64,000 nt of DNA from Yoonia vestfoldensis DSM 16212 (lineage in GTDB: Bacteria; Pseudomonadota; Alphaproteobacteria; Rhodobacterales; Rhodobacteraceae): assembly GCF_000382265.1 (NCBI RefSeq), contig NZ_KB907983.1, positions 1 to 64,000 of the forward strand. The letters are read 5' to 3'. This document shows positions 15,658-19,980 of this stretch, piece by piece. Both the position numbers and the translations under genes were made by a program. Below the pieces are notes generated by a model that ran no database searches, was not told where the DNA came from, and saw nothing but the letters and a program-made list of their open reading frames with translations. Position 1 is the first letter of the stretch, and every line of letters starts with the position of its first letter.

Positions 15658-15719
15658 GAGGCCTCCGGCGGGGATTACGTCAAATCGCGTTTCACGCGAA
15701 TTGACGGGCTCGGAAGATG
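15658..15719 (+). repeat. Dispersed intergenic repeat, type A copy with inserted hairpin
   Basis: The repeat begins GAGGCCTCCGGCGGGGATTA and ends GGGCTCGGAAGATG. Unlike other copies it is split by a near-perfect palindrome at about 15,679-15,705 (GTCAAATCGCGT, TTC, ACGCGAATTGAC). It sits between soxG and dnaG. Confidence 0.7.
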
Positions 15720-15782: not shown

Positions 15783-17732
15783 ATGAGCCTGCCACCCGGA
15801 TTTCTGGACGAATTGCGCAACCGGCTGTCACTTGGACAGGTCGTCGGGCGCAAAGTCATGTGGGATACCCGCAAATCGAACCCCGGCAAAGGCGATCTCT
15901 GGGCGCCGTGCCCGTTCCATCAGGAGAAAAGCGCCAGTTTCCACGTCGATGACCGCAAGGGGTTCTATTATTGCTTTGGCTGCCACGCCAAAGGTGATGC
16001 GATTTCCTTTGTCCGTGAAACCGAGAACGTCGATTTCATGGGGGCGGTGAAGATTCTGGCGGGCGAAGCGGGCATGCCGATGCCCGAACGCGACCCGCAG
16101 GCGCAGCAAAAGGCTGATCTGCGCGGCCAGCTGGTCGAGGTGATGGAAAAGGTCATTAAATGGCACCGCCTGCAATTGCAGACGGGGGCTGCGGCCGAGG
16201 CGCGCGATTACCTTGCCCGACGTGGTCTATCGCCCGAAGCGCAGGCGCGCTGGGATATCGGATTCGCGCCCGCACATGGCGGCGCGCTGGCGTATCTGAC
16301 CGCACAGGGGGTGGACCCCAAGCTAGTGATTGCAGCAGGGATCGCCGCCGAAAGCGACCGGGGTGGCGCGCCTTACGACAGATTCCGCGGGCGGATCATC
16401 TTTCCGATCCGTGATGCGCGGGGGCGGGCCATCGGCATGGGGGGCCGCGCGATGGACCCCAACGCGCCTGCGAAATACTACAATTCACCCGAAACGCCGC
16501 TGTTCGACAAAGGCCGCAGCCTGTTCAACCACGGCCCTGCGCGCGAGGCGGCGGGAAAGGGCAAGCCATTGGTCGTGGCCGAAGGCTATATGGATGTGAT
16601 CGCTTTGTCCGAGGCGGGGTTCACCGCCACGGTGGCCCCCCTTGGCACCGCGATCACCGAGGATCAGCTGCGCCTCTTGTGGCGGATCGCACCCGAGCCG
16701 ATCATCGCCCTTGATGGTGATACCGCCGGTCTGCGCGCGGCGATGCGGTTGATCGACATCGCGCTGCCGCTGCTTGAGGCGGGGCAGAGTTTGCGTTTCG
16801 CGCTGATGCCGCCAGGGCTGGACCCTGACGACGTGATAAAGACGCAAGGCGCGGGGGCGATGCAGAAACTGCTGGATGCCGCGATCCCGATGGTGCGTAT
16901 GCTCTGGGAGCGCGAACTTAAGGCAGCGCCGACCGAGACGCCAGAGCAGAAGGCGGCCTTGAACCAACGGATCAGGGCGTCAATCAGCAAAATAAAGGAT
17001 AAGGAACTTCGCCACTACTATGGCGAGGCAATGAAAGAGTTTCGACGCATCACGTTTCAGACAAACTGGGCGCCGGAGTACAGGCCAAAGGGCAAGAGGC
17101 TTGGCGGTGGTGCTACAGTTGAAGCGAAGAGATCGGTACTTGCTGCTGATCTTGATCGTCGGGGCCTGGAGAGGATCAGGGAAAGGATTGTCCTGGCAGT
17201 TTGCATCAAGAAGACGGAAATGATTGCCGTTTTCGAGCAGGGCTTGGATACATTTGAATTTCTGGAAGGAAGACACCAGGAACTCGCCCTTGCTCTCGTC
17301 AGTTTGGGTCTATCCAACAATGATGTCGATGTTCTGTTGTCGTTGGGAGCAATGGGCTTCGCCGACGAAGTGGCCAACATACTTGCCGATCCGATGGTAA
17401 GGATTAACCCGTCTATGAAGGCAAACTGCAAAGCAGAGGTCGCCAAGATGACGGTTGCAGAGCAGTTGGCGATCTTGAGCGCGGATCGAGGGCATCGCCG
17501 TGAAATGCGCGATGCGGAGGAGGATATGGATGGTCTGGTCGATGAGGGGCTTACTTGGCGGCTTATGCAGGCGAATCGTGCTAGATTTGACGCTTCGGGC
17601 GTGTCGCTGGACGAGTCTGTCGAATTTGAGAGAGGTTCAAACGGTCTAGCACTCAGCAAAGATGAGCGCAGCAACCTTGAAAATCTAATCGCAGCTATCA
17701 ACTTCAGTCCTATAAAGAAGCGGAACCCATGA
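15783..17732 (+). CDS. dnaG: DNA primase DnaG with an atypical C-terminal third
   Basis: The ATG at 15783 gives 649 aa. The zinc-binding domain is Cys43, His46, Cys64 and Cys67 (CPFHQEKSASFHVDD...YYCFGCHAKGD); the TOPRIM core shows VVAEGYMDVIAL and IIALDGDTAGL. It makes RNA primers at the replication fork and docks DnaB through its C-terminus. From about residue 390 (near 16,960) codon use becomes clearly less GC-rich (AAA, ATA, AGG and TTG codons) until the stop at 17732, unlike the first two thirds and rpoD. A second DnaG-like tail lies just downstream, so the 3' end looks like a recombinational replacement. The frame is intact. Confidence 0.95.
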   Translation: MSLPPGFLDELRNRLSLGQVVGRKVMWDTRKSNPGKGDLWAPCPFHQEKSASFHVDDRKGFYYCFGCHAKGDAISFVRETENVDFMGAVKILAGEAGMPMPERDPQAQQKADLRGQLVEVMEKVIKWHRLQLQTGAAAEARDYLARRGLSPEAQARWDIGFAPAHGGALAYLTAQGVDPKLVIAAGIAAESDRGGAPYDRFRGRIIFPIRDARGRAIGMGGRAMDPNAPAKYYNSPETPLFDKGRSLFNHGPAREAAGKGKPLVVAEGYMDVIALSEAGFTATVAPLGTAITEDQLRLLWRIAPEPIIALDGDTAGLRAAMRLIDIALPLLEAGQSLRFALMPPGLDPDDVIKTQGAGAMQKLLDAAIPMVRMLWERELKAAPTETPEQKAALNQRIRASISKIKDKELRHYYGEAMKEFRRITFQTNWAPEYRPKGKRLGGGATVEAKRSVLAADLDRRGLERIRERIVLAVCIKKTEMIAVFEQGLDTFEFLEGRHQELALALVSLGLSNNDVDVLLSLGAMGFADEVANILADPMVRINPSMKANCKAEVAKMTVAEQLAILSADRGHRREMRDAEEDMDGLVDEGLTWRLMQANRARFDASGVSLDESVEFERGSNGLALSKDERSNLENLIAAINFSPIKKRNP

Positions 17733-17760
17733 CACGGTCGAGCAATTCAGCTGCATTTAA

Positions 17761-17871
17761 GCGCGAGCTGAAAGCAACGGGGCACGGATGAAAAAGGACG
17801 AGCGCAGTGCATTCGATCAATTGCTCGACCAGATCAATTTTGCCAAGGGGCAGGGCCGGCCTAGGTCATGA
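17761..17871 (+). pseudogene. Orphan remnant of a DnaG C-terminal tail
   Basis: In the frame running from 17761 to the TGA at 17869-17871 the translation contains SNG, four residues, then KDERSAFDQLLDQINF. The real dnaG ends with SNG, four residues, then KDERSNLENLIAAINF. Twelve of 23 aligned residues are identical with no gap. The frame is closed upstream by TAA at 17758-17760 and has no start signal, so it is a fragment, not a gene. It is GC-rich like the genome, so it may be the original dnaG 3' end displaced by a divergent one. Confidence 0.75.
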
Positions 17872-18000
17872 CATGGCAACAGAACTGAAAAACACGCGGT
17901 CGACTGCTTGCGGTTCACGCCGATGCAGGGTTGATTCGGATCAGACCGAATCAGCCGAATCACCCTGGCTGCGTAACGACGACTTGGAAGGGTCCCTTTG

Positions 18001-19980
<1,980 letters not shown>

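What the first reader, a model, noticed from the sequence alone, without database searches (positions are those of the whole stretch)
16960..17871. dnaG looks like a recombinant: foreign-looking 3' third, with a second DnaG tail left behind
The first two thirds of dnaG use the GC-rich codons of the genome. From about 16,960 codon choice turns clearly more AT-rich until the stop at 17732. Just downstream, at 17761-17871, a different frame encodes a peptide aligning with the last part of dnaG without gaps (SNG, four residues, KDERSAFDQLLDQINF against KDERSNLENLIAAINF). Seen directly: the duplication and the composition shift. Inferred: the region encoding the helicase-binding domain was replaced by a diverged copy and the original tail survives as a fragment. 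A swap in DnaG's DnaB-interacting end could change priming control.
Basis: partly seen in the sequence, partly recalled or inferred. Interest (0 to 1): 0.75.

Follow-up and report, generated by a model that had tools for sequence, protein, structure and literature searches.

The report
Primase gene with a transplanted tail
In this marine bacterium the rear third of the gene for the replication primase DnaG was replaced by a distant relative's version, leaving a scrap of the old end behind; a similar exchange is seen in two related bacteria while the partner helicase stayed the same.

Summary
The window lies in the GTDB genus of Yoonia tamlensis. Codons 1-371 of dnaG are native (96% protein identity to three sister species); the rest is only 36-38% identical to theirs. 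Identity breaks at 16897 and returns at 17775: 878 bp were replaced. The last 97 bp of the sisters' dnaG survive behind the new stop (17775-17871, 92-93% DNA identity). An AU test rejects grouping the new segment with the sisters (p=1.6e-32). Two other genomes were recombined at the same left boundary with related AT-rich segments: Y. tamlensis, and G387 in another genus, whose dnaG region is 98-99% identical to a sister's except for a ~650-bp internal cassette (46%). All three segments belong to a rare 'type B' DnaG C-region, scattered through the family and apparently native in a few genera. DnaB of each recombinant is 97-100% identical to its sisters', so the helicase was not exchanged. Limited searches found no mobile element carrying the segment. 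Best explanation: uptake of DNA from a type B relative, anchored by homology in the conserved catalytic core, with an illegitimate join on the right in this genome. Donor, delivery route and selective cause are inferred.

The parts
15783..16896 (+). native part of dnaG: zinc-binding domain and catalytic core (residues 1-371)
   Evidence: 358 of 371 residues identical to L004, 96% to L004/L005/L006; DNA 996, 980, 969 of 1113
16897..17732 (+). replaced part of dnaG: type B end (residues 372-649) with its own stop codon; end of the RNA-polymerase domain, linker and presumed DnaB-binding end
   Evidence: 36-38% identity to sisters; 46-47% to Yoonia tamlensis; AU p=1.6e-32; lower GC3
17733..17774 (+). 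42 bp of foreign spacer behind the new stop, without a counterpart in the sisters
   Evidence: alignment
17775..17871 (+). relic of the original dnaG 3' end (last 31 codons and stop)
   Evidence: 89-90 of 97 bases identical to L004/L005/L006; tail HMM E=1.2e-17
17872..18000 (+). native dnaG-rpoD spacer, 123-125 of 130 aligned columns identical to sisters; holds three GANTC sites at 17933, 17948, 17957
18001..19980 (+). rpoD, native right flank
   Evidence: ORF; an rpoD homologue lies downstream of dnaG in all 123 loci examined

Best explanation
dnaG of this genome is a recombinant. Shown: the segment 16897-17774 was replaced by the corresponding end of a diverged 'type B' dnaG plus 42 bp from behind it, and the old last 97 bp were left behind. 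Inferred mechanism: a fragment of chromosomal DNA from a type B relative entered the cell (gene transfer agent or transformation). It paired with the strongly conserved catalytic-core sequence just before codon 372 (homologous join). The other end joined without extended homology near the old 3' end (homology-facilitated illegitimate recombination, HFIR), deleting most of the old end. The product is the only dnaG found in the genome, so by inference it primes replication with the unchanged DnaB. In G387 both ends were homologous, so most of the last 60 residues were kept in frame; in Y. tamlensis the right join also lies where no homology is evident. The conserved core works as a crossover anchor beside a fast-diverging end.
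For: N/C conflict: 96% against 36-38% identity; AU test p=1.6e-32 for the window, 2.7e-7 for Y. tamlensis, 1.5e-4 for G387. Sharp joins and relic. The same left boundary in three recombinants. G387 against its sister G453: 98.1% over 1500 bp upstream, 99.4% over codons 1-360, 99.2% over 1000 bp downstream, but 45.8% DNA and 31% protein identity in the cassette, residues 374-587. The four strongest falls of GC3 among 106 distinct dnaG genes are G218, G387, G053 and the window, all type B. Type B appears vertically held in G270/G868 (N 83%, C 70%), so chromosomal donors can exist. One dnaG in G000. One match to the DnaB N-terminal family in 20 of 20 genomes; DnaB identity to sisters 97-99% (window), 97-98% (G053), 100% (G387 to G453). 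All nine genomes tested carry a GTA-type gene. HFIR leaves this one-sided pattern: PMC3240628 (abstract and passages).
Against: No close donor was found: the best match to the window's segment is 46-47%, so the donor, its own 3' flank, and whether the right join was truly without homology are unknown. HFIR is rare in the laboratory (PMC5361080 passages; PMC3240628 abstract). The GTA marker shows a possible vehicle, not its use. Type B rows have long branches, and the tree program flags some joins inside that group. The window's own fall in GC3 is the mildest of the four (robust z -2.9), and other type B rows show no such fall.
Confidence: 0.8

Rival explanations
1. A mobile element (phage, satellite or integrative element) once sat inside dnaG, brought its own DnaG end to restore the gene, and was later lost by a deletion that left the new end, a 42-bp scar and the last bases of the displaced old end.
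For: Same left boundary in three genomes; AT-rich inserts; spacer without a counterpart in the sisters behind the new stop in the window (42 bp) and in Y. tamlensis (80 bp).
Against: No confirmed relative of the segment in IMG/VR (these scans rest on short peptide patterns). In phage records no match to the window or Y. tamlensis segment and one 54-residue match to the G387 segment in an unannotated 6.5-kb record. Plasmid matches: six records, 27.5-30.4% identity, large Paracoccus/Pseudorhodobacter replicons. No displaced second C-end was listed beside a complete dnaG in 56 genus genomes or in the 346 of 394 family genomes with a match at E<=1e-10 as far as listed. In G387 the exchange is an internal cassette with a native tail, which an insertion would not give.
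Confidence: 0.1
2. Two steps: ordinary double-homology replacement of the dnaG end, spacer and part of rpoD from a relative, then a second recombination or deletion that brought back the native right side including the last 97 bp of the old dnaG.
For: Both ends are homologous in G387, and rpoD follows dnaG in all 123 loci, so donors would normally offer homology on both sides.
Against: Needs two events at one site; the native relic lies behind foreign spacer, which plain reversion would not preserve.
Confidence: 0.2
3. No transfer: the dnaG end diverged very fast in this lineage and its tail was duplicated in place.
For: The dnaG end does evolve faster than the core across the genus.
Against: AU tests; type B membership and composition shift; the relic is like the sisters' tail, not like the window's own new tail.
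Confidence: 0.02
4. Assembly or contamination artefact.
For: The window is from a 45-contig assembly; no reads were available.
Against: The parallel cases are in other assemblies, one of them the type-strain genome Y. tamlensis DSM 26879 (L098), of whose dnaG a 1000-base stretch is identical in G053.
Confidence: 0.01

Closest known systems
Homology-facilitated illegitimate recombination (HFIR) in naturally competent bacteria
   Same: One join inside homologous sequence, the other illegitimate (PMC3240628, abstract and passages).
   Different: Reported from transformation of three species and, rarely, E. coli conjugation; here read from a natural genome, in a replication gene, donor unknown.
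Displacement of T6SS effector (and Rhs) 3' ends leaving orphan remnants, Vibrio cholerae
   Same: Conserved upstream anchor, variable 3' part, remnants of older modules left downstream, HFIR proposed (PMC5361080, abstract and passages).
   Different: Those loci are effector/immunity genes; dnaG is a single-copy housekeeping gene with no known reason to diversify.
DnaG-type bacterial primase (TIGR01391, PF10410)
   Same: The product is a DnaG: TIGR01391 375.3 bits against a cut-off of 283.6; PF10410 just over its cut-off (21.3 bits, cut-off 20.6) at residues 373-414.
   Different: Its last 278 residues belong to a rare C-region type, unlike that of its sister species.

Membership tests
DnaG primase | zinc-binding and catalytic (TOPRIM) core over the curated cut-offs | tested here: met
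DnaG primase | C-terminal end that binds DnaB | tested here: inconclusive
   PF10410 marginal in the window (21.3-21.8 bits, cut-off 20.6) and G387 (21.6), 25.1 in native L004, no match in Y. tamlensis; AlphaFold model helical but too poor to use (pLDDT 43); binding itself not testable here
HFIR product | one junction in homologous sequence | tested here: met
   shared LLDAAIPMV coding stretch up to 16896
HFIR product | other junction without extended homology, with deletion of recipient DNA | tested here: inconclusive
   old end is missing except for 97 bp; donor flank unknown, so lack of homology cannot be shown
Integrative element at dnaG | element genes between dnaG and rpoD, displaced old end | tested here: not met
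   only 268 bp between stop and rpoD in the window; no displaced C-end beside a complete dnaG listed in 56 genus genomes

The most novel reading that the evidence does not exclude
The DnaG end in Rhodobacteraceae is an exchangeable module: two old C-region types persist in the family, and type B cassettes keep entering type A genomes, mostly at one boundary and without change of DnaB, because something that attacks or depends on that surface (for example phage or plasmid replication proteins) favours a switch of type.
Probability: 0.25. Interest if true: 0.75.

Novelty: new variant of a known kind. Interest (0 to 1): 0.52.

Why it matters
From general knowledge, DnaG works with DnaB throughout replication, so its helicase-binding end might be expected to co-evolve with DnaB and to resist transfer. 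Here that end was exchanged for one about 31-38% identical in three genomes with DnaB unchanged; G387 and G453 are otherwise nearly identical around dnaG. These are natural experiments on how much of the primase-helicase contact is really constrained, and on whether something selects for switching. Four paper searches (listings with abstract starts only) showed no report of it.

Tried and rejected
Donor search: scans of GTDB contigs, IMG/VR, phage and plasmid records, and searches of 394 family, 244 order and 289 class genomes found no close donor. IMG/VR and GTDB scans depend on short peptide patterns and can miss diverged copies; the order search used E<=1e-35. At E<=1e-25 the class search matched 4 of 289 genomes, all in the window's family.

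Helicase co-exchange: rejected, DnaB is like the sisters' in all three recombinants (columns filled in at least 18 of 20 rows).

G023 (L086) looked like another recombinant in the genus with a relic; it is a run of N in the assembly and was dropped. Left out of the 87-row trees: L084 and L087 (partial), L086 (gap), L033 (same genome as L090). One search used 35 rows chosen by me. L088 (second piece of G036) was fetched and not used.

Type B census: the profile was built from six of the seven high scorers, so their separation is partly by construction; G075 (246 bits, next 181) is the only one found without being in it. 345 of 394 genomes matched at E<=1e-25.

Same left boundary: I looked for genomes with a native core, which favours boundaries late in the gene. 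G026, same GTDB genus, seems to carry a longer replacement starting near residue 100, so the boundary is not fixed in all cases.

Genus searches around G218 and G075 found no other species, so their cases could not be tested. The GTA marker is a possibility, not a test of delivery.

Full report
What was checked. I number residues from ATG 15783, whose product starts MSLPPGF as in relatives; an in-frame ATG at 15717 also exists. The gene ends at 17732. The genus was searched with the full protein: 56 genomes including the window's own (G000), 56 of 56 with a match.

Composition. GC3 per 40 codons is 0.65-0.82 in the first ten blocks and 0.50-0.65 in the seven from 16983 on. Over 106 distinct dnaG genes the difference between the 216 codons after codon 372 and the 372 before has median -0.03; the four largest falls are G218 (-0.28), G387 (-0.25), G053 (-0.23) and the window (-0.14; robust z -2.9). 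The window's is the mildest of the four, and other type B genes show no such fall. Composition by itself would be suggestive, not decisive.

Homology. Against the nearest species G054, G022 and G055 (L004, L005, L006) the first part is 96% identical in protein and the rest 36-38%. In 60-base windows DNA identity to these three is 70-97% from 15783 to 16862, 75-78% in the window from 16863, 47-48% in that from 16923 and 31-70% after it. The last base shared with a sister is 16896. Among the genus genomes the two parts move together: where one of the three nearest neighbours shown has 95% or more in the first part, the second has 73-99% (63% for the partial L087), but 36% for the window. G053 has 90-91% against 34-35% with G040, G016 and G025. 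Several other genomes with 90-92% in the first part have 54-78% in the second. L086 is broken by Ns and does not count.

Relic. From 17775 to 17871 the window follows the sisters' own dnaG end, 89-90 of 97 bases, and then their spacer, 123-125 of 130 aligned columns. It is unlike the window's present tail. An HMM of dnaG tails built without the window found it at E=1.2e-17. Of 123 loci (some genomes under two ids) only L086, the assembly gap, also passed the inclusion threshold; the next E was 1.3. Counted from the stop codon, the distance to rpoD is longest in G270 (444), the window (271) and G053 (205), with L042 at 202, against a median of 133 (L086 set aside). The first three are type B.

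Trees. A 35-row tree of the first part puts the window in a group with L004-L008 (100/97), Y. tamlensis with G040, G016 and G025 (100/98), and G387 with its sister G453 (99/94). In the tree of residues 373-588 all three leave these sisters and join a group of ten 'type B' rows (100/100). Forcing them back is rejected: p=1.6e-32, 2.7e-7 and 1.5e-4. Long branches make the order inside type B uncertain, as the program warns. An 87-row FastTree gave the same split with support 1.0.

The near-isogenic pair. G387 and G453, in another genus of the family, are 98.1% identical over 1500 bp before dnaG, 99.4% over codons 1-360 and 99.2% over 1000 bp after it. Residues 374-587 of G387 are only 31% identical in protein and 45.8% in DNA. 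The left edge lies in the same LLDGAIPMV stretch as in the window. On the right homology returns inside the coding sequence: 55 of the last 60 residues are the sister's. This is a recent cassette exchange with no trace of an element.

Type B. A profile of eight type B ends, run over 394 family genomes, gave seven at 246-320 bits and the next at 181. Six of the seven helped build the profile. In 289 class genomes the only matches at E<=1e-25 were 4 in the family. G270 and its congener G868 both have type B with concordant parts (N 83%, C 70%). The first parts of G218, G026, G366, G151 and G075 form a group of their own (100/99). So type B looks native in some genera and has moved into type A genomes. 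G026, placed in the window's genus, seems to carry a longer replacement starting near residue 100.

Helicase. Each of 20 genomes has one match to the DnaB N-terminal family. DnaB is 97-99% identical between the window and G054, G022 and G055, 97-98% between G053 and its sisters, and 100% between G387 and G453. The exchange was not matched by a change of helicase. In G387 most of the last 60 residues are native; from general knowledge (recalled) the main DnaB-contacting hairpin of DnaG lies at that end. In the window and Y. tamlensis that end is foreign.

How it most likely works. Shown: replacement, boundaries, relic, recurrence, unchanged DnaB. Inferred: DNA of a type B relative was taken up, paired with the conserved core, and joined on the right without extended homology in the window. 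This is the pattern of homology-facilitated illegitimate recombination (PMC3240628, abstract and passages) and resembles displaced Vibrio T6SS effector modules (PMC5361080, abstract and passages). Rhodobacter capsulatus gene transfer agents move random ~4.5-kb fragments that replace alleles in recipients (PMC9690577, start of abstract in the listing), and a GTA-type gene is in nine of nine genomes tested. That is opportunity, not proof.

What stays open. The donor is unknown, the selective cause is unknown, and no fitness or priming effect has been tested. I looked for reports of DnaG end exchange with four searches and saw none in the listings; most subscription papers are not held.

Verdict.

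Noticed in passing
window 17933-17961 and the dnaG-rpoD spacer of relatives: The spacer before rpoD holds on average 3.9 GANTC sites within at most 130 bp; 103 of 105 distinct spacers have three or more (2 have none), against about 0.5 expected from random sequence; the spacers are related, not independent. GANTC is the CcrM methylation site (recalled), so rpoD may be under methylation-dependent control in the family.
   Followed up: partly
L158 (G000 contig 24), L159 (contig 17), L160 (contig 26), L161 (contig 2): The window's genome has four copies of the GTA_TIM gene, while eight relatives have one each. Three lie in loci whose shared genes are 81-95% alike (two genes 96-100%); the fourth is 39-53% like them. 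It looks like one standard GTA plus three related prophages with GTA-like tail genes; the genes were not annotated.
   Followed up: partly
L085 (G026): DnaG of G026, same GTDB genus as the window, is type B and departs from its congeners from about residue 100 on, while its DnaB is 82-90% identical to theirs, within the range of the genus: probably a longer replacement.
   Followed up: partly
L037 (G218): dnaG of G218 has the largest fall in GC3 of 106 genes (0.81 to 0.54) at the same place; no congener was available to test a swap.
   Followed up: no
L034/L155 (G270), dnaG-rpoD spacer: An unusually long spacer (444 bp from the stop codon) with no dnaG relic and no GANTC in the last 130 bp before rpoD.
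   Followed up: no
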